This document shows, piece by piece, positions 1-42,061 of a stretch of DNA of 64,000 nucleotides. The position numbers and the translations under genes were made by a program. Below the pieces are notes generated by a model, which had not been told where the DNA came from, searched no databases, and was given only the letters and a program-made list of their open reading frames with translations. The stretch's first letter is position 1. Each line of letters opens with the position of its first letter. This DNA is from a virus. Location: IMG/VR virus record IMGVR_UViG_3300028840_005153, positions 1-64,000 of that record. The stretch is one strand, 5' to 3'.

Positions 1-53
1 CCACTTCACTGATGAGATAGCCATCAGAAACATTTTTCAAAAGGAGGAGAATT
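1..53 (+). promoter_or_regulatory. Partial three-hairpin leader RNA (copy E, cut by the window edge)
   Basis: This is the 3' part of the leader repeated at 484, 1721, 3286 and 4429. CTGATGA lies at 9-15. A 6-bp hairpin pairs 9-14 with 22-27 around the loop AGATAGC, one base shorter than the ATGATAGC loop of the copies at 484, 3286 and 4429. It is followed by AGAAACATTT and an AAAAGGAGGAG ribosome binding site before the ATG at 54. The upstream hairpins are outside the window. Confidence 0.7.
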
Positions 54-260
54 ATGTCACACGCTCAAACTTTTGCGGAACAGCTAATTGAAATTCTCGG
101 TTTTGCTGCGGAAGAGGAGCCGGATTGTTATCAGACTTTCGATCCGGTAGACTTTGGAACCCTTCGTGAAAAGTATTTGACAAATGACGAAGGAGTTTGG
201 GTCAGCTTTGGCAATGGGGATGAATATACTATTGTCGTTAAAAAAGTAAAAGGAGAATAA
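54..260 (+). CDS. Small acidic hypothetical protein (68 aa)
   Basis: I do not recognise this protein. The ATG sits 7 nt after a strong AAAAGGAGGAG site and follows the truncated leader RNA, so the start is secure. The product is acidic in its first half (run EEEPD) and ends in a basic KKVKGE. It is followed after one base by the next gene, with which it probably forms one transcript unit. Confidence 0.7.
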   Translation: MSHAQTFAEQLIEILGFAAEEEPDCYQTFDPVDFGTLREKYLTNDEGVWVSFGNGDEYTIVVKKVKGE

Positions 261-261
261 A

Positions 262-480
262 ATGCTACCGATAATAAAAAATAGCGTTCCGGAAAAAAAG
301 AAAAGCAAAGTCTTCCGTTCCCTTCGCTTTCGTATTCTTTATAAAATAAAGAATATTGAAAGTAAAGTATTGACGGCGGGATTTGCAGTTTATGGCGATG
401 CCCTCCTTTACGCTTCCGCATTGCGTTCCTTGGAGGTAGCAAAACATTCGTGGGAAGAAATTTACATCGAGTTTAAATAA
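262..480 (+). CDS. Small basic hypothetical protein (72 aa)
   Basis: An AAAGGAG site lies just upstream of the ATG, inside the end of the preceding gene. The product has a lysine/arginine-rich N-terminal third and a mixed C-terminal half with no recognisable domain. It ends three bases before the leader RNA that precedes the gene at 585. Function is unknown. Confidence 0.65.
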   Translation: MLPIIKNSVPEKKKSKVFRSLRFRILYKIKNIESKVLTAGFAVYGDALLYASALRSLEVAKHSWEEIYIEFK

Positions 481-483
481 TTC

Positions 484-553
484 GAAACCGGGAAGACTTT
501 ACTTCCCGGTCGTATCAGGGTGGTGCCTGATGCCTGAAGATGATAGCCTTCAG
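484..553 (+). promoter_or_regulatory. Three-hairpin leader RNA, hammerhead-like (copy A)
   Basis: GAA at 484-486 is followed by a 9-bp stem (487-495 with 502-510), then C511, then an 8-bp stem (512-519 with 526-533) capped by GTGGTG, then CTGAAGA at 534-540. The CTGAAG also pairs with CTTCAG at 548-553. The order GAAA, stem, UC, stem, CUGANGA is that of a circularly permuted (type II) hammerhead core. I see no partner strand that would close stem II, so catalysis is uncertain. Conserved AAACATTT and AAAAGGAGGAG follow and lead to the ATG at 585. Confidence 0.8.
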
Positions 554-584
554 AAACATTTATTTTTTTAAAAGGAGGAGTAAA

Positions 585-1685
585 ATGGCGAAAGAATCGA
601 AAGTTGGATTTGCGAAACCTGCTAATGGGAAAGTGGTCCACATTGTTGTCGACGGCCTTCAGGCTTGCGATAAGAAAACCACTTTGACTGCTGATCCTGA
701 ATTGCAAATTACTTCGGTAACTTGTAAGAAATGTCAGCGCTTTGCTTTTTATAAGGAAATCCTTGTTAAAGGGCAAAAGCAGGAAGAGAAATCCACAAAG
801 GGCGATTCGAAGAAAAAATCTTCCAAGCCGAAGAAAAAGGTTGTGGATGCGCCTAAAAAAACGCCGGAAGAAATTGCCGATAAAAAAGCGGCAAAGGAAA
901 AAGATGAAGTAAAATCTCCCGGTCCTGTTAAACATACGAAAGTAAATGTTAACAGGAAAGAAAAGCGCAATCATGCAAAACTTGTCGCCGCTACTCAAGA
1001 GTCGCTTCTTGAGGTTCTTCTTCCCTTCCAAAAAGAAAAAATCCATGAAATTTCAATCATGCGCATATTTGAGGAAGCTCAAACTCATTTGCGCCAAATG
1101 CTTATGGATGCTTGTGAAGGGCAGGAAGAAAAAGATTATTTGAAAAGCCATTGGACGCTTGATTGGCGTATATTTACTCAGGCGTTTGAGAAAATTGGCT
1201 TCGCTAAATTGCGCGGCAAAGATCCTGACAAGGGACGCGTGGTTCTTTTCTATAGCGAAAAAGCAGAAAAGTCAAAGACTAAAATTAGGCGTCGCAATAA
1301 TAGCGGTTCAAAGAAAACGGCTCGCGTTATTAAACGCCGCTCCAAACCTAAAGATAAGGCGGAAGAAGAAAAGAAAACGGGTCGCGTTATTAAACGCCGT
1401 TCAAAGAGTAAAGATAAAGAAAAGACGGTCACCAAAAAGCTCAAAGATAAAAATGCTTACGGTCATCGCGAAGGCTCAATGGCGGCGAAAATTGATGAAA
1501 TGCTTTCGGAAGGTTTTATCCTTAAGGATGCCGTCGGAATTATTTCTAAAGAATTTAATCGATCAGATATAAAAGCGCGAAGAAAAATTTTGGCAGCTAT
1601 TAAATACCTTTCGCGTGAGTTGGGTATTAAAATCGAAGTAATAATGCAGGGAAGTCAAGAAGATGATTTTTATAAAATAGTTTAA
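585..1685 (+). CDS. Basic zinc-ribbon/histone-like protein with VIKRRS repeats
   Basis: The protein has 366 residues starting at ATG 585, chosen over an upstream ATG at 540 because AAAAGGAGGAG lies 5 nt before it and 540 falls inside the leader RNA. It has an N-terminal domain with two CxxC-like cysteines (VTCKKCQR) and a lysine-rich linker (about residues 70-145). A helical domain follows, then three basic segments KIRRRN, RVIKRRSK and RVIKRRSK, the last two inside a near-duplicated block of about 22 residues. It ends in a folded C-terminal region. It probably binds nucleic acid. The repeated motif is the tag seen on many replication proteins in this window. Confidence 0.7.
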   Translation: MAKESKVGFAKPANGKVVHIVVDGLQACDKKTTLTADPELQITSVTCKKCQRFAFYKEILVKGQKQEEKSTKGDSKKKSSKPKKKVVDAPKKTPEEIADKKAAKEKDEVKSPGPVKHTKVNVNRKEKRNHAKLVAATQESLLEVLLPFQKEKIHEISIMRIFEEAQTHLRQMLMDACEGQEEKDYLKSHWTLDWRIFTQAFEKIGFAKLRGKDPDKGRVVLFYSEKAEKSKTKIRRRNNSGSKKTARVIKRRSKPKDKAEEEKKTGRVIKRRSKSKDKEKTVTKKLKDKNAYGHREGSMAAKIDEMLSEGFILKDAVGIISKEFNRSDIKARRKILAAIKYLSRELGIKIEVIMQGSQEDDFYKIV

Positions 1686-1687
1686 TT

Positions 1688-1714
1688 ATACGGGGGAATT
1701 TACTTCCCCCGTAT
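1688..1714 (+). terminator. 11-bp hairpin after the 585 gene
   Basis: Bases 1688-1698 pair perfectly with 1704-1714 (G5/C5 core, loop TTTAC). There is no U-tract; the next bases lead straight into leader copy B. It may be a weak terminator or a 3'-end stabiliser. Similar hairpins precede leader copies C and D. Confidence 0.5.
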
Positions 1715-1720
1715 AAACCC

Positions 1721-1786
1721 GAAACGCGGCTTCGGCCGCGTCGTCGCGAGGTGGTGCTCGTGGCCTGACGATGGGAGCCATCGCAG
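1721..1786 (+). promoter_or_regulatory. Three-hairpin leader RNA, hammerhead-like (copy B)
   Basis: GAA 1721-1723 is followed by a 7-bp stem (1724-1730 with 1735-1741) closed by a TTCG tetraloop, then C1742, then an 8-bp stem (1743-1750 with 1757-1764) with the GTGGTG loop, then CTGACGA at 1765-1771. The third hairpin pairs CTG with CAG and CGATG (1769-1773) with CATCG (1779-1783), bulging A1768. Primary sequence differs widely from the other copies while pairing is kept, which is strong covariation support. It ends before the SD of the AAA+ gene. Confidence 0.8.
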
Positions 1787-1814
1787 AAAAACATCTTTCA
1801 AAAGGAGGAGAATT

Positions 1815-3248
1815 ATGGGCATCGAAGCAAAAAGAATCGTTGATTTTCTTCGGGCAGGCTATGGAGCGTTCTGGATTAAAACGCAGGAGCCTGACAGGGT
1901 TCAGTCGGTATTGATGCCAATGGTCAAAGACTTCCAAAGAAAAGACGGTGGAAAGTACAATCTTTCAAGCTGGGATTGTTCTACTTCGTCTAATCCTTTG
2001 GAACCACTTAATCAATTGAGTGCGGAAGAGGAATTGACAGTTAAATTTCTTTTCAATTTCCATTGGTTCATAGACAAGCCTCAAGTTATCCAGAAGATTC
2101 AAAACGATCTTCCTCTTTGGGCTTCAGAAGGCAAAGCAATCGTGATCGTTGCGCCGGTAGTAAAAGTTCCGGTTGAATTGCAAAATGATTTCACGATTTT
2201 GAATTTTAGCTTGCCTGACGAAAAAGAAATTCTTCACACAATTTCTTATCATATTCCTGAAGGGAAGAGAGGTCCAAGCGAAAACGAAATGGCGCGGCTA
2301 ATTGGTGCGGCCAAAGGGTTAACGCAAAAGGAACTCAATAATGTTTTGAGTCTCTCAATGGTAGTAAAAGGCAAATACGATACCGCGCTAATTAACGAGC
2401 ATAAAGCTACGGTCATTGAGAAGACGGGATTTGTAGAAGTTATCCCACCGAAGATAAACTTCTCAAACGTAGTTGGTTATGAAGTAGTCAAAGATCATGC
2501 TCGTGCTACCATGCACAATCCTAAGGCGAAAGGGTTCATGGTAATTGGCCCTCCAGGTTGTGGTAAAACTACCCTAATGAACGCAATCGTTGGCGAGTCT
2601 GGGAAGATCGGGCTGAAGATCACGCTTGGAAAACTCTTTTCTAAGTTTCAAGGGGAAACGGATGCCAATGTAGATTTCGTAATTAACCTTATTAAATCCA
2701 TTGGTGATTGCGTTGTTTTGATAGATGAGTTTGAAAAGCAATTTGCTGGATCTTCTGGAGATGGAACACTCGATAGCGGAACCACTCGGCGCGCGACTGG
2801 TCGGTGGTTGGAATTTCTTCAAGATCGGCCATCGGGCGTTTTCATTGTAGCTACGGCGAACAGTTTTAATGGTATCCCGCCGGAATATCTTCGGCCAGGA
2901 AGATGGGATACTTCGCCATTTTTTATTGATCTGCCAAATAAGAAAACTCAAGATTCGATCTTCAAATACTATGCTGAAAAATATAGTATTGAAGAAAAGA
3001 AAATCCCTAAAATGGAAGGCTGGTCAGGGGCTGAGATCGAAGCATGTTGCCAAATTGCTGATATGCACGGAATACCGTTTACTTCGGCAATGCGCTTAAT
3101 CAAACCTCAATCGGTAACAATGAAAGAACAAATTGACGCCCTGAGGTCGTGGGCAAAGGACCGCACCATAAATGCGGAAGAAGTCAAAGACATTCCAGTC
3201 AAGGCTGGAGTGGTGGCATTAAACGGTAAACGCAAAATTGATACTTGA
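1815..3248 (+). CDS. Ycf46-like AAA+ ATPase
   Basis: This 477-residue AAA+ ATPase carries Walker A GPPGCGKT (about residues 245-252), Walker B CVVLIDEFE (about 298-306), an RR pair after the TTRRATGR stretch, and the second-region signature YLRPGRWDTSPFFIDLP, typical of FtsH/Ycf46-type ATPases. The N-terminal 200 residues (starting AKRIVDFLRAGYGAFWIKT) resemble the non-ATPase domain of Ycf46 proteins. The following genes at 3389 and 3645 look like DUF2997 and Ycf35/DUF1257, the families that accompany Ycf46-like ATPases in bacteria. ATP-driven remodelling is a family inference; the substrate is unknown. AAAAGGAGGAG sets the start. Confidence 0.88.
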   Translation: MGIEAKRIVDFLRAGYGAFWIKTQEPDRVQSVLMPMVKDFQRKDGGKYNLSSWDCSTSSNPLEPLNQLSAEEELTVKFLFNFHWFIDKPQVIQKIQNDLPLWASEGKAIVIVAPVVKVPVELQNDFTILNFSLPDEKEILHTISYHIPEGKRGPSENEMARLIGAAKGLTQKELNNVLSLSMVVKGKYDTALINEHKATVIEKTGFVEVIPPKINFSNVVGYEVVKDHARATMHNPKAKGFMVIGPPGCGKTTLMNAIVGESGKIGLKITLGKLFSKFQGETDANVDFVINLIKSIGDCVVLIDEFEKQFAGSSGDGTLDSGTTRRATGRWLEFLQDRPSGVFIVATANSFNGIPPEYLRPGRWDTSPFFIDLPNKKTQDSIFKYYAEKYSIEEKKIPKMEGWSGAEIEACCQIADMHGIPFTSAMRLIKPQSVTMKEQIDALRSWAKDRTINAEEVKDIPVKAGVVALNGKRKIDT

Positions 3249-3255
3249 TGAAATC

Positions 3256-3275
3256 GGGGGAGCATTTGCTCCCCC
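3256..3275 (+). terminator. 8-bp G5/C5 hairpin before leader copy C
   Basis: GGGGGAGC (3256-3263) pairs with GCTCCCCC (3268-3275) around ATTT. No T-run follows. It sits between the stop of the AAA+ gene and leader copy C, like the hairpins at 1688 and 4405. Confidence 0.5.
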
Positions 3276-3285
3276 AAATAAATTC

Positions 3286-3357
3286 GAAACGGCCGAAGTA
3301 ATTACTTCGGCTGTCGCTGGCGAGTGGTGTCGCCAGCCTGATGATGATAGCCATCAG
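3286..3357 (+). promoter_or_regulatory. Three-hairpin leader RNA, hammerhead-like (copy C)
   Basis: GAA 3286-3288 leads into a 10-11 bp stem (3289-3298 with 3305-3314), then C3315 (a GUC triplet 3313-3315). A perfect 8-bp stem (3316-3323 with 3330-3337) carries the GTGGTG loop, followed by a textbook CTGATGA at 3338-3344. CTGATG pairs with CATCAG at 3352-3357, leaving the loop ATGATAGC. N7 of the CUGANGA covaries with its hairpin partner between copies (A-T here T-A). It precedes the DUF2997 gene. Confidence 0.82.
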
Positions 3358-3388
3358 AAACATTTATTTTTTTAAAAGGAGGAGTAAA

Positions 3389-3595
3389 ATGGCGAAACAG
3401 GTAAGGATTACTCTCGGCAAGGACGGAAGTGTTAAAGCTGAGGCCCTTGGCTTTAAGGGCGGAGCCTGTGAAGACGCGACAGCTTTCCTTGACAATCTCT
3501 TTGATGGTCCAAAGAAAAGAGATTTGAAAGCAAGCTATCACGAAACCGAAGACATCCAAGTATGCAATGGACTTCCTTCGGGGTGGTGCGGCTAA
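3389..3595 (+). CDS. DUF2997-like protein (68 aa)
   Basis: The start at 3389 follows AAAAGGAGGAG. The N-terminal 45 residues have the DUF2997 pattern: a beta strand RITLGKDG, then EALGFKGGAC, then DATAFLDNLF. This small family is found beside Ycf35/DUF1257 and Ycf46-type ATPases in bacteria. The C-terminal tail contains two further cysteines (CNGLPSGWCG). It is the middle member of a three-family module shared with the genes at 1815 and 3645. Molecular function is not established. Confidence 0.8.
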   Translation: MAKQVRITLGKDGSVKAEALGFKGGACEDATAFLDNLFDGPKKRDLKASYHETEDIQVCNGLPSGWCG

Positions 3596-3644
3596 TTTCG
3601 AAGAGGAAAGTAAACAGTAAAAAAATAAACGAAAGGAAAAAGTC

Positions 3645-4016
3645 ATGTCTCACATTTCTACTTACGCTCAAAAAGTCAAAGACATTTCCAGCTTTAAAGT
3701 TACTCTTCAAAACCTTGGCATTACTTACCGTGAAAATTGCGATGTCCAGCAATTTGGCCGGAATATTGTAGAAAATGCCGCCATCGGATTTCAAATTCCT
3801 GGTTGGAAATATGAAATCGCAGTCAAAGATGATGGCAGCATCCTCTACGACCATTGGGGTAGTGAGCCTAATACAATGGAACGTCTCGGCCTTGTTTTGC
3901 AAAAATACAACGAAGACGTCATTCTTTCCGCAGCTTATGGACAAGAAAATGTCTCCAATGTATGGACAGAAAAAAAGGTCGCAAATGGTGATACGGTAAT
4001 TGTTTTGGAATACTAA
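3645..4016 (+). CDS. Ycf35/DUF1257-like protein
   Basis: The 123-residue product begins MSHISTYAQKVKDISSFKV and continues TLQNLGITYREN, matching the beginning of the Ycf35 (DUF1257) family, which starts MSHFS and contains an L..aL.dLG segment. It follows the DUF2997 gene by 49 nt and has a GAAAGG site before its ATG. It has no leader RNA of its own, so it probably shares the transcript of copy C. A role together with the Ycf46-like ATPase is likely from context; the biochemical activity is unknown. Confidence 0.8.
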   Translation: MSHISTYAQKVKDISSFKVTLQNLGITYRENCDVQQFGRNIVENAAIGFQIPGWKYEIAVKDDGSILYDHWGSEPNTMERLGLVLQKYNEDVILSAAYGQENVSNVWTEKKVANGDTVIVLEY

Positions 4017-4038
4017 AATCCTTGCAAGGAGTAAAAAG

Positions 4039-4398
4039 ATGGAAAAACAAAAAGTGACTGTAGGAACGCTTTTCAATCTTAATACCTACCATTTCGGTTC
4101 GGGCACAAAAAGTGAATGGAAGATAAAAGAGAAAAAGCCTGGACAACATTACAAGCTGACGCGGGGCGAAGATATTATGGTTTTTAAAACTATGCTCGAC
4201 GCTTATCTTCGTGTTATCGTAGAAGTTAGTTTCAATGGTTTGATTGTCCATCATTGTCCAATTGATGCTTATAACCTGGAAGAAAAACACCGGAACTTTT
4301 TTATTGGCTTGCAAGAAAAATGCTTTGAGTTGAGAGCCAATAAAAACGTGAAGAAAAAAGAACACTTTGAAAAGGTTTTTAACATTGTGAAAATTTAA
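4039..4398 (+). CDS. Hypothetical protein (119 aa)
   Basis: I do not recognise the family. The start at ATG 4039 follows a GCAAGGAG site and is preferred to an in-frame upstream ATG lacking one. The product is basic, with a lysine-rich C-terminus (NVKKKEHFEK). It is the last gene in the unit led by copy C and may belong to the Ycf46/Ycf35 module by position. Confidence 0.65.
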   Translation: MEKQKVTVGTLFNLNTYHFGSGTKSEWKIKEKKPGQHYKLTRGEDIMVFKTMLDAYLRVIVEVSFNGLIVHHCPIDAYNLEEKHRNFFIGLQEKCFELRANKNVKKKEHFEKVFNIVKI

Positions 4399-4404
4399 CT
4401 GTGA

Positions 4405-4424
4405 GGGGTCCCTACGGGGACCCC
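4405..4424 (+). terminator. 8-bp GGGGTCCC hairpin before leader copy D
   Basis: GGGGTCCC (4405-4412) pairs with GGGACCCC (4417-4424) around a TACG tetraloop. No T-run follows, and leader copy D starts five bases later. Confidence 0.5.
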
Positions 4425-4428
4425 ATTC

Positions 4429-4502
4429 GAAACGGCGGAAAGACTTTTCTTTCCGCTGTCGTGCTGAGGTGGTGCTCAGTGCCTGAAGATGATAGCCTTC
4501 AG
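4429..4502 (+). promoter_or_regulatory. Three-hairpin leader RNA, hammerhead-like (copy D)
   Basis: GAA 4429-4431 is followed by an 11-bp stem (4432-4442 with 4449-4459), C4460, an 8-bp stem (4461-4468 with 4475-4482) with the GTGGTG loop, and CTGAAGA at 4483-4489. CTGAAG pairs with CTTCAG at 4497-4502. The third hairpin is followed by AGTTAAATAATC rather than AGAAACATTT, so the downstream GAAAC is not universal. AAAAGGAGGAG and the ATG at 4534 follow. Confidence 0.8.
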
Positions 4503-10856: not shown

Positions 10857-12152
10857 ATGATATTCTTTATTGAACCTAATTTTGAAAAGAAAACTTTTGC
10901 GGAAGATATTAATTTGTCTATCAAATCAAAGTATATAATGTTTTCCTTATTGCATCATAAATTCAGTAATGGTTATAAACTTTATGATGTAGCAGAAAAA
11001 CTTGGAATGAGTAGAAGTCTTCTGAGAAAAGGACTTAATGAATTAGAAGGAAATGAATATCTTTTTAAAATTGAAATTAAAACTAATGCCGAAGTAAATC
11101 CTCCAAGGCTTTATTTAGTTTCAGTCAATAAGGGTAAATTAACTTCAGGCGATATGGCTTCCTTAATTCCAAAAGAAGAAGAATTTTCAAAGCATGGAAT
11201 TAATCGTGTCGCTTTTTATGTAAGGAAGAAAGTCTTTCGAATTTGGTTTGACTTTCGTTCTCGCGCGCGCTCGCGCGACAAATTATATAATAATATATTA
11301 TTCTTTTTCTCTCACTCGTTCAATAATAACCTTCGGTTATTATCTCACTCGTTCAAGAAAAAAGGGAAAACCGCTGCGCGAATTTCCGAGTCTCCTTCTT
11401 TGAATTTTGCTAAGGTTAGAAAATCTGCGAAAGTTAAAGTGGTTTGGGATTGCTGGATAGAATTTGCTTCGAAGAAAAATTCACCATTACCTAATCATAG
11501 GGTCGGCACCAAAAAAGAAAAGCAAATAGTTTCAGCCGTAAGAAATGCCTTAGGAAATTATAGCGAATTAGAAATTTGTGAAGCAATCGAAGTATTTTAT
11601 ATTTTCCTAAATGAGAAATGTCCTCCCACCTATAAAAAACTTCCTGGCTTTAAAAAGGTTCCCTTAAATGAATTTATAAGATTCTCTCCTTATTACCTTG
11701 AACGTATCAGTTCAAATAAAATATCTTCGAAGATAATAAATCATCAATCGTGGTTACGCCTTTGTATGGGTGGATTGGATATTGTCGAAGATAAATTTAT
11801 AGCGAAGAGGAAAGCTGATGGTATCGACCCGAAGATAATAAAGCAATTTGAAAAATCATGGGTTAAATTTTCTGGAAACACTTGCACTCAAAGGGATAAA
11901 AATAATTTTACAACTGCGGCCGAATTGTTGCTACAATATGTTAAGCAAAACAAACGCCATTTAAACCACAAGGAAGAGGATAGATTTTGGATTTATGATT
12001 TTGTTCGAGGTATAGTTTTCGGTTGCCTTAACAAAATGCGTGAAGAGAAAATTGGAAGAAAAAAAATTCATTCAGGTTTTTTAACGCAGGATTTCTTTTT
12101 CAACGACGAATTAACTGAATACATTAAATTCATTGGGGCCTGGAAGAGATGA
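10857..12152 (+). CDS. Winged-helix replication initiator/helicase-loader-like protein
   Basis: The 431-residue protein has an N-terminal winged-helix region (YKLYDVAEKLGMSRSLLRKG about 41-60) and a C-terminal helical region of about 250 residues. They are joined by a low-complexity linker at about 130-170 (RSRARSRD, then SHSF repeated). The gene sits between primase and DnaB, where phage initiators or loaders are placed. The DNA coding the linker contains inverted and direct repeats (11261-11356) resembling an origin. Exact function is inferred from domain layout and position. TTTTGAGGGG precedes the ATG. Confidence 0.65.
   Translation: MIFFIEPNFEKKTFAEDINLSIKSKYIMFSLLHHKFSNGYKLYDVAEKLGMSRSLLRKGLNELEGNEYLFKIEIKTNAEVNPPRLYLVSVNKGKLTSGDMASLIPKEEEFSKHGINRVAFYVRKKVFRIWFDFRSRARSRDKLYNNILFFFSHSFNNNLRLLSHSFKKKGKTAARISESPSLNFAKVRKSAKVKVVWDCWIEFASKKNSPLPNHRVGTKKEKQIVSAVRNALGNYSELEICEAIEVFYIFLNEKCPPTYKKLPGFKKVPLNEFIRFSPYYLERISSNKISSKIINHQSWLRLCMGGLDIVEDKFIAKRKADGIDPKIIKQFEKSWVKFSGNTCTQRDKNNFTTAAELLLQYVKQNKRHLNHKEEDRFWIYDFVRGIVFGCLNKMREEKIGRKKIHSGFLTQDFFFNDELTEYIKFIGAWKR
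11261..11356 (+). repeat. Origin-like repeat cluster inside the initiator gene
   Basis: In order: a GC-alternating palindrome TCGCGCG...CGCGCGA (11261-11278), an AT-only stretch (11281-11302), then direct repeats TCTCACTCGTTCAA at 11310-11323 and 11343-11356. These flank a 9-bp perfect hairpin (TAATAACC arm, TTC loop). The base composition is sharply different from the surrounding gene. The position, in the linker-coding part of an initiator-type gene, parallels the lambda origin inside gene O. Confidence 0.6.
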
Positions 12153-41114: not shown

Positions 41115-41188
41115 AAGTATTAAATAATTTCGGGAAGTATATTTCGGGCATATGTAATGTATAGAAATTCCAGTTGAAGGCTTTCAAA

Positions 41189-42061
41189 ATGAGTATTCGT
41201 AGAGAAAAGAAAATAGCTAAGGAGAGAGTGAAAAAGGGTATAGGAGAAAAGAAAACCCCTGCCCATGCACCACTCGGCTCGGGAAGGATCAAAAGAAGAA
41301 ATAAAGCAGAACGAAAGAAGGGAATCAAATTCCTAAAGGAAAGAAGAAAGCAAAAGAGATTTGAGCGCAATATGGAAGCATATGAAATGCGTTTGAAAGG
41401 ATATAAGTATAAAGATATCGCTGAACGCTTTGGGAAGACTTTGCCGCAGGAGGCTTATCAATGGGTTCAGCAAGCGATGGTAACTATACAGCAGGATACA
41501 AAGGAAGACGAAGAAAAAGTAAAGCAATTGGAAATTGATCGTATGGATTGTCTTCTACATGGAATGTGGGATAGCGCAATACATGGACATGTCGGGTATG
41601 ATAAAAAAGGCAACCGAGTAAAATTTCCTCCAAACCCAAAAGCAGCTGATGCAGTATTAAAGATAATGAAACGCCGAAGCGATCTTCTCGGTCTTGATAA
41701 ACCGAAAACTACTTTCCTTGGAAACGATGAAAATCACCCACTGATAGAAAACACTGAAGCGAAATTAATTTCTACTTTAACTAATCTTGCGAAGACTTGT
41801 CAAAAGGGAAAAGATGAACAGTTGCCTGAAAGTGAAATTACGGCAATGGAAGAAATGGTTCCAATTAAATCTACCAACATTAAAAAGGCAAGCTATAACG
41901 AAGAAACGGAAGTACTCACGGTCCAATTTAAAACAGGGAAGAGATATGAATATCTCGATGTTCCACCTAACTTATGGGACAAGTTTATGGCAGCTAAATC
42001 CCAAGGAAGTTTCTTCCATAAAGAGATAAGAAGAAAATTTGAATATATCAAAGTAGATTAA
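41189..42061 (+). CDS. Small-terminase-like protein with C-terminal KTSC domain
   Basis: ATG 41189 is tentative (TTG 41174 possible). The N-terminal half is basic with GRIKRRNKAERKK, then an HTH-like MRLKGYKYKDIAERFGKTL and helices as in phage small terminase subunits. The last 65 residues (NIKKASYNEETEVLTVQF, then GKRYEYLDVPPNLWDKF and GSFFHKEIRRKFEY) are a KTSC domain. The fusion and the position upstream of the large terminase suggest DNA recognition for packaging plus an extra nucleic-acid-binding unit. Confidence 0.68.
   Translation: MSIRREKKIAKERVKKGIGEKKTPAHAPLGSGRIKRRNKAERKKGIKFLKERRKQKRFERNMEAYEMRLKGYKYKDIAERFGKTLPQEAYQWVQQAMVTIQQDTKEDEEKVKQLEIDRMDCLLHGMWDSAIHGHVGYDKKGNRVKFPPNPKAADAVLKIMKRRSDLLGLDKPKTTFLGNDENHPLIENTEAKLISTLTNLAKTCQKGKDEQLPESEITAMEEMVPIKSTNIKKASYNEETEVLTVQFKTGKRYEYLDVPPNLWDKFMAAKSQGSFFHKEIRRKFEYIKVD

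What the first reader, a model, noticed from the sequence alone, without database searches (positions are those of the whole stretch)
1..4502. Repeated early leaders carry hammerhead core nucleotides plus a competing covarying hairpin
Four complete copies (484, 1721, 3286, 4429) read GAAA - stem - UC - exactly 8-bp stem with GTGGTG loop - CUGANGA, and a fifth partial copy lies at 1. All hammerhead invariant positions (C3 U4 G5 A6 N7 G8 A9, G12 A13 A14, A15.1-U16.1, C17) are present in all four, in permuted type II order. Both stems are kept by different sequences, including wobble and compensatory changes. However, I find no strand that closes stem II. CUGANG itself pairs downstream with CNUCAG, and N7 covaries with that partner (A-U, U-A, C-G). 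So this is either a hammerhead held in an off state, a derived element, or a new fold that resembles one.
Basis: partly seen in the sequence, partly recalled or inferred. Interest (0 to 1): 0.92.

Follow-up and report, generated by a model that had tools for sequence, protein, structure and literature searches.

The report
Phage gene leaders with self-cutting RNAs
Nearly every early gene of this uncultured phage is preceded by a self-cutting RNA (a type II hammerhead ribozyme), which is a known kind of element, but here each copy is wired so that its spent catalytic core can fold into a new hairpin just ahead of the gene, an arrangement I found only sporadically in other hammerheads.

Summary
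The phage record (76 kb; window = bases 1-64,000) carries 11 complete type II hammerheads and one cut off by the record's start, all on + and just upstream of AGGAGG...ATG. Rfam Hammerhead_II accepts nine; a model from ten copies recovers window 479-559, held out, at 81 bits. The 'missing' stem II exists: 2-4 bp (CC/GG, UC/GA, GAUC/GAUC), covarying, with the published loop I/tail pseudoknot. So this is a hammerhead, not a new fold. Six related records (five phages besides this one) carry the same arrays, 59-77 nt from cleavage site to start codon, including one directly before the orthologous AAA ATPase gene in every phage. The array kind was described in 2011. What is unusual is the competing hairpin: all 12 copies can pair the core CUGAN(G) with a downstream strand, N7 covarying with its partner; other hammerheads show this only at chance level, except two unrelated cases. 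Best reading: intergenic self-cleavage of early mRNA, after which the spent core refolds into a 5' hairpin; an off-state is the main rival. Relatives without hammerheads carry other structured leaders with analogous refolding hairpins. No activity was tested.

The parts
1..27 (+). Partial copy A (record begins inside it): 3' strand of stem I 1-8, CUGAUGA 9-15, stem II strand GAU 16-18, AGCC 19-22; competing hairpin CUGAUG(9-14)/CAUCAG(22-27). RBS 39-49, ATG 54
   Evidence: sequence, hairpin fold -6.4 kcal/mol, z -4.7
479..553 (+). Copy B, type II hammerhead: stem II strand UUC 481-483, GAAA 484-487, stem III to U510, cleavage after C511, stem I 512-533 (loop GUGGUG 520-525), CUGAAGA 534-540, stem II strand GAU 542-544, tail AGCC 545-548
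   Evidence: not reported by Rfam but 81.1 bits, E 1.5e-17 with model R1 that did not include it
534..553 (+). Competing hairpin of copy B: CUGAAG(534-539)/CUUCAG(548-553), N7=A with U; uses the core, stem II strand and pseudoknot strand
   Evidence: 9.5 kcal/mol better than the ribozyme fold without pseudoknot
573..587 (+). Shine-Dalgarno AGGAGG 573-578 and ATG 585 of the gene after copy B (585-1685), 73 nt after the cleavage site
1716..1783 (+). Copy C, type II hammerhead: stem II strand CCC 1718-1720, GAAA 1721-1724, cleavage after C1742, stem I 1743-1764, CUGACGA 1765-1771, extra U1772, stem II strand GGG 1773-1775, AGCC 1776-1779
   Evidence: Rfam RF02276 52.6 bits, gathering 37
1765..1786 (+). 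Competing hairpin of copy C: CUG-(A6 bulged)-CGAUGG / CCAUCG-CAG, 9 bp, N7=C with G
1815..3248 (+). AAA ATPase gene (477 aa) behind copy C; its orthologue is directly behind a hammerhead in all related records that carry hammerheads
   Evidence: Pfam PF00004 E 5.8e-19
3281..3357 (+). Copy D, type II hammerhead: stem II strand UUC 3283-3285, GAAA 3286-3289, cleavage after C3315, stem I 3316-3337, CUGAUGA 3338-3344; competing hairpin CUGAUG(3338-3343)/CAUCAG(3352-3357)
   Evidence: Rfam 43.8 bits; hairpin
4424..4502 (+). Copy E, type II hammerhead: stem II strand UUC 4426-4428, GAAA 4429-4432, cleavage after C4460, stem I 4461-4482, CUGAAGA 4483-4489; competing hairpin CUGAAG(4483-4488)/CUUCAG(4497-4502)
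   Evidence: Rfam 33.3 bits, below gathering; R1 model 81.4 bits, training copy; hairpin
1687..1715 (+). Extra hairpin between the upstream stop codon and copy C (UAUACGGGGGAAUUUACUUCCCCCGUAUA); similar hairpins before copies D (3256-3275) and E (4405-4424)
   Evidence: sequence

Best explanation
The early genes of this phage are read as long polycistronic RNAs. Between most genes, a few nucleotides after a stop codon, sits a type II hammerhead ribozyme that cuts the RNA after C17. The upstream mRNA then ends in the stem III hairpin. The downstream mRNA begins with a 5'-OH on the 8-bp stem I hairpin, about 65-77 nt before its start codon. Cleavage frees the catalytic strand CUGANGA, which in this phage then pairs with CNUCAG or CAUCNCAG just downstream. 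This gives two adjacent 5' hairpins before an A/U-rich spacer and an open Shine-Dalgarno site: a stabilising and insulating cap built from the spent ribozyme, which would also prevent the core from reassembling. Because the two folds are mutually exclusive, the same pairing should slow cleavage before it happens. Shown here by sequence: hammerhead identity, both folds, covariation, position. Inferred: that it cleaves in infected cells, the order of events, and the effect on mRNA stability or translation.
For: Hammerhead: RF02276 over cut-off for nine of eleven complete copies, held-out copy at E 1.5e-17; stems I, II and III covary, 97% of cells paired against 74% shuffled and 35-61% slid. mRNA processing: 56 hammerheads in this record and six related records (three of them shared by two near-identical records), all with cleavage-to-ATG 59-77 nt, median 67; GAAA lies a median 4 nt after a stop codon; one lies directly before the orthologous ATPase gene in every one of these records. 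Refolding hairpin: 12 of 12 copies, 5-9 bp; N7/partner pair in 12 of 12, permutation p 2.7e-4; core paired probability 0.77 against 0.43 with shuffled tails here, 0.38 against 0.36 in 149 other type II hammerheads, 0.43 against 0.42 in relatives. In copies with N7=A the partner is U, although the pseudoknot would prefer A there (GCCU instead of GCCA), which suggests selection on the hairpin itself. Analogous leaders in relatives without hammerheads: the hairpin before the RBS re-uses the 3' strand of the upstream element's outer helix, so it should form once that helix is opened. A 5' terminal hairpin is a known mRNA stabiliser (PMC3997798), and the synthetic insulator RiboJ is exactly a hammerhead followed by a hairpin (PMC6206723).
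Against: No cleavage or transcript data. Eight of twelve copies carry an extra U, and one an extra A, between A9 and stem II, and stem II is only 2-4 bp, so rates could be low; unrelated phages carry the same insertion. Nearest-neighbour energies put the hairpin fold 5-10 kcal/mol below the ribozyme fold without its pseudoknot, and the pseudoknot recovers only about 2.4-2.8, tertiary contacts not counted, so the RNA might mostly be trapped uncut. The hairpin is absent from the hammerheads of the relatives. The twelve copies are paralogues, so covariation events are few (at least two).
Confidence: 0.55

Rival explanations
1. Regulated or timed off-state: the hairpin forms first or dominates at equilibrium and holds the ribozyme uncut, so that full-length polycistronic mRNA persists until a protein, helicase, ribosome or ion change releases the core.
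For: The hairpin consumes C3-G8, the stem II strand and the pseudoknot strand; it is predicted 5-10 kcal/mol more stable than the ribozyme without pseudoknot. Downstream competing helices can block a ribozyme in vivo when helices are of moderate stability (PMC2817708).
Against: The ribozyme core is strictly kept in all copies and stems covary, as expected for active ribozymes. No ligand-binding domain or extra conserved sequence is visible. Relatives use the same ribozyme array without the hairpin.
Confidence: 0.25
2. The downstream pairing is a by-product: the sequence spread with the copies, or is kept because CAUCNC can extend the loop I pseudoknot (GUGGUG/CAUCNC), and the hairpin has no role of its own.
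For: Copies are paralogous; GUGGUG can pair with CAUCGC or CAUCAC (-4.8 to -5.2 kcal/mol as a free duplex).
Against: Stems I and III diverged freely while the hairpin stayed in 12 of 12; N7 follows its partner although the pseudoknot pairs equally well with A or G there; copies with N7=A give up a pseudoknot pair; the same core pairing exists in two of three hammerheads of L181 and three of three of a Streptomyces prophage.
Confidence: 0.15
3. Cleaved ends are rejoined (spliced or circular RNAs) by a 2',3'-cyclic phosphate/5'-OH ligase rather than left as separate mRNAs.
For: Hammerhead ends are substrates of such ligases (general knowledge).
Against: No such ligase appeared among the proteins scanned (not every gene was scanned); Perreault et al. 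looked for spliced or circular products of phage hammerheads and found none (PMC3088659).
Confidence: 0.04
4. Not a ribozyme: a new fold that merely resembles a hammerhead, or a decayed one.
For: One complete copy falls below Rfam's cut-off and one was not reported by Rfam at all.
Against: All core nucleotides and the pseudoknot are kept; held-out copy E 1.5e-17; the relatives' pseudoknots covary visibly (UGAC/GUCA, UGAUU/AAUCA, AUGAGC/GCUCAU).
Confidence: 0.02

Closest known systems
Hammerhead ribozyme type II (Rfam RF02276; Perreault et al. 2011, PMC3088659)
   Same: Permuted order GAAA - stem III - UC - stem I - CUGANGA; very short open stem II; pseudoknot between loop I and the tail after stem II
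   Different: Tail contains a strand that re-pairs with CUGAN(G); often one extra nucleotide between A9 and stem II
Clustered hammerheads in prophages (same paper)
   Same: Several hammerheads flanking single genes or short blocks, proposed there to cut long phage RNAs into gene-length mRNAs, shown to cleave in vitro and, for Agrobacterium, in E. coli
   Different: Here a coherent lineage of tailed phages with up to about a dozen copies each, fixed distance to the start codon and a conserved position before an orthologous gene
RiboJ synthetic insulator (PMC6206723)
   Same: Hammerhead followed by a hairpin just upstream of the RBS, left as the 5' end after cleavage
   Different: RiboJ's hairpin is a separate appended element; here the hairpin's 5' strand is the ribozyme's own core
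Engineered ribozymes with competing helices (Mahen et al. 2010, PMC2817708)
   Same: Mutually exclusive active and inactive folds within one mRNA
   Different: Those are hairpin ribozymes with designed inserts; here the competition is natural, conserved and covarying
RNase III processing sites between phage T7 early genes (from memory, not retrieved)
   Same: Intergenic cutting of an early polycistronic mRNA
   Different: Needs a host enzyme and a long duplex; possibly the mode of the hammerhead-free relatives, not of this phage

Membership tests
Hammerhead ribozyme type II (RF02276) | Core C3 U4 G5 A6 N7 G8 A9, G12 A13 A14, A15.1-U16.1, H17 | tested here: met
   All 11 complete copies
Hammerhead ribozyme type II (RF02276) | Stems I and III closed by loops, stem II open | tested here: met
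   Stem I 8 bp and stem III in all copies; stem II 2-4 bp, covarying U-A/C-G
Hammerhead ribozyme type II (RF02276) | Covariance model score over the gathering cut-off | tested here: met
   9 of 11 complete copies over 37 bits; window 4425-4501 scores 33.3; window 479-559 not reported but 81.1 bits with model R1
Hammerhead ribozyme type II (RF02276) | Loop I / tail pseudoknot | tested here: met
   UGGU with GCCA: 95% of cells paired over ten copies, nearly invariant there; variable and matching in relatives (read by eye: the permissive shuffle control in that call does not separate it)
Hammerhead ribozyme type II (RF02276) | Self-cleavage 3' of C17 | not testable with these tools
   Needs in vitro transcription or 5'-end mapping
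Clustered phage hammerheads (Perreault 2011) | Several hammerheads flank individual phage genes on the coding strand | tested here: met
   12 copies, all + strand, each before a gene with a Shine-Dalgarno site
RiboJ-like insulator | Separate hairpin downstream of an intact hammerhead | tested here: not met
   Hairpin shares C3-G8 with the ribozyme core; it may still work alike after cleavage
Allosteric (ligand-gated) ribozyme | Ligand-binding domain coupled to the core | tested here: inconclusive

The most novel reading that the evidence does not exclude
A natural self-recycling leader: after cutting, the ribozyme core is converted into a 5' hairpin cap, under selection separate from catalysis. 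The early genes of one phage family use interchangeable intergenic processing elements (hammerheads in some members, long imperfect hairpins, possibly RNase III sites, in others), several of them built around the same refolding logic.
Probability: 0.35. Interest if true: 0.75.

Novelty: new variant of a known kind. Interest (0 to 1): 0.56.

Why it matters
The role of phage and bacterial hammerheads is described as an open question (PMC6155905). A lineage in which dozens of hammerheads sit at a near-constant distance before genes, keep the same position before an orthologous gene while their stems change completely, and are replaced in sister phages by other structured leaders makes the mRNA-processing hypothesis directly testable. 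The refolding hairpin is a simple natural design for an mRNA insulator, comparable with RiboJ.

Tried and rejected
Chance: rejected. New fold or decayed hammerhead: rejected. Competing hairpin as a general feature of type II hammerheads: rejected; 6-mer core complements are at chance in 175 others and the core is no more paired than with shuffled tails. Close relatives with the same hairpin in IMG/VR: none found with patterns for both hairpin classes; the DNA polymerase search gave only a 32% relative and a looser pattern returned only non-hammerhead sequences. Intrinsic terminator: a promoter/terminator scan gave no excess over shuffles, and the U-run lies several nt away from the hairpin. 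Known ribozymes in the hammerhead-free relatives: no Rfam match to a ribozyme even at lax threshold. My first pseudoknot shuffle test was too permissive (wobbles and free register) to be informative. A search of 296 genomes of the Streptomyces-prophage genus gave only two further genomes with hits, one with four hammerheads.
Full report
WHAT IS THERE. The window is bases 1-64,000 of a 76,048-base virus record. Each reads GAAA, a stem III hairpin, UC, an 8-bp stem I hairpin with loop GUGGUG, then CUGANGA. Rfam's Hammerhead_II model (RF02276) scores two of the four over its gathering threshold and one just below. Searching the whole record adds seven more over threshold at 73,000-75,507 (read in L011). 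With the copy at 479-559 and the partial copy at 1-27 that makes twelve, all on the + strand, each followed by (A)AAAGGAGG and ATG. If the record's two ends adjoin, which I did not show, this is one array of about 7.5 kb over early-type genes: an HNH endonuclease, an AAA ATPase, DUF2997 and DUF3150 proteins and unknowns. There are none in the rest of the record. Replication and structural genes of a tailed phage make up much of the rest.

IT IS A HAMMERHEAD. It is the three or four nucleotides just before GAAA pairing with those just after CUGANGA, often past one extra U: CCC/GGG, UUC/GAU (two pairs), UUC/GAA, GAUC/GAUC. Rfam's consensus shows the same 2-bp stem. On an alignment of ten copies, the second pair is U-A in five, C-G in four and U-G in one; stem I varies on both sides at all eight pairs; 97% of cells pair against 74% in shuffles and 35-61% in slid controls. 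Loop I UGGU faces GCCA in the tail, the pseudoknot described for type II hammerheads by Perreault et al. 2011 (PMC3088659). A covariance model built from the ten copies, without copy 479-559, finds that copy at 81.1 bits, E=1.5e-17.

RELATIVES. The ATPase gene behind copy C finds six IMG/VR records (50-55% identity), two of them near-identical. All six carry arrays of type II hammerheads (3-14 Rfam matches each). In 56 elements of these and of the window's record (three are shared by the two near-identical records), the distance from cleavage site to ATG is 59-77 nt, median 67, and GAAA begins a median of 4 nt after a stop codon. A hammerhead stands directly before the ATPase gene in every one. 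Stem sequences differ completely between phages, while pseudoknot partners match within each element (UGAC/GUCA, UGAUU/AAUCA, AUGAGC/GCUCAU). This is strong comparative support for cutting between genes, the use that Perreault et al. proposed for clustered prophage hammerheads. Type II hammerheads before genes are also abundant in unrelated phages, one record holding 24.

THE COMPETING HAIRPIN. In all twelve copies the core strand can pair downstream: straight CUGANG/CNUCAG (six copies), CUG-bulged A-NGA(UGG)/(CCA)UCN'CAG (five copies) or CUGAU/AUCAG (one copy, 73053). It uses C3-G8, the stem II strand and, except in 73053, the pseudoknot strand, so it excludes the ribozyme. N7 and its partner are A-U in three copies, U-A in five, C-G in three and U-G in one; random re-pairing reaches 12 of 12 compatible with p=2.7e-4. 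That value ignores the kinship of the copies, and I count at least two independent compensations. Copies with N7=A have U where the pseudoknot would want A, so the hairpin overrides a pseudoknot pair. Mean pairing of the seven core positions is 0.77 against 0.43 with shuffled tails here, but 0.38 against 0.36 in 149 other elements and 0.43 against 0.42 in relatives, so the hairpin is not a general trait of the family. Similar pairing recurs in L181 (two of three hammerheads, nearly identical copies) and in a Streptomyces diastatochromogenes prophage (three of three, with different intervening sequences). Nearest-neighbour energies favour the hairpin by 5-10 kcal/mol over the ribozyme without pseudoknot (copy 73053 was not compared in that script). 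The pseudoknot would give back about 2.5, plus tertiary contacts that cannot be computed here.

HOW IT PROBABLY WORKS. I take the array as an mRNA processing system with a 5' hairpin formed from the spent core. Support comes from related phages that lack hammerheads (L182-L185). Before nearly every early gene, including the ATPase gene, L183-L185 have another repeated leader: outer helix, small internal loop, long hairpin, then a hairpin before the RBS whose 5' strand overlaps the 3' strand of the outer helix. In L183 the last hairpin is predicted for 13 of 13 tails, in L184 for 16 of 16, in L185 clearly for 10 of 12. That hairpin can fully form only when the outer helix is opened, for instance by cutting. 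The internal loops are not conserved between these phages, which fits a duplex-specific enzyme such as RNase III better than a ribozyme; this is inference. L182 instead has near-perfect hairpins of roughly 20 bp. A hairpin near the 5' end stabilises bacterial mRNA (PMC3997798), and RiboJ, a hammerhead followed by a hairpin, raises expression and is thought to expose the RBS (PMC6206723). The rival, that the hairpin keeps the ribozyme off until needed, cannot be excluded: downstream competing helices do inhibit ribozymes in vivo when helices are moderately stable (PMC2817708).

NOVELTY AND LIMITS. Type II hammerheads, their pseudoknot and their clustering in phages are known. New here are the regularity across one phage lineage and the conserved, covarying reuse of the core in a second hairpin. 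I found no description of either in the open papers searched; subscription papers were not covered. Nothing about activity was tested. The host is unknown.

Noticed in passing
L182, L183, L184, L185 (e.g. L183:3731-3814, L184:4767-4857, L185:12636-12736): Related phages without hammerheads carry another repeated structured leader before nearly every early gene: outer helix, internal loop, long hairpin, then (L183-L185) a mutually exclusive hairpin re-using the outer helix's 3' strand. No Rfam match; possibly RNase III sites or an undescribed element.
   Followed up: partly
L193/L195 (Streptomyces prophage, three hammerheads) and L181:6686-7150: Independent type II hammerheads whose core can pair with a downstream strand, as in this phage.
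   Followed up: partly
L200, L202, L203 (another Streptomyces-group genome): Three hammerheads with GAUGC/GCAUC, a different competing hairpin that takes G8, A9 and part of the stem II strand.
   Followed up: no
L011:11110-12000 (record 72,110-73,000): About 0.9 kb without a convincing gene just upstream of the first hammerhead; a possible early promoter and leader region.
   Followed up: no
window 541, 1772, 3345, 4490: One extra nucleotide (U) between A9 and stem II in eight of twelve copies, and an A in copy 73053; also in relative L141 and in unrelated phages. Its effect on cleavage is unknown.
   Followed up: partly
window 560-580 and equivalents: The U-run before the Shine-Dalgarno site can weakly pair with AAAAGGA (third hairpin in predicted folds), possibly lowering RBS access.
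   Followed up: no
window 1: The record starts inside a hammerhead copy, probably an assembly break at the repeats.
   Followed up: no
L142:9986-11397: ATPase open reading frame ends early (stop at 11131) although similarity continues to 11397; frameshift or sequencing error.
   Followed up: no
window 41174-42061: Protein with a PHROG match labelled RNase E (E 3e-17) over residues 55-184; identity not examined.
   Followed up: no
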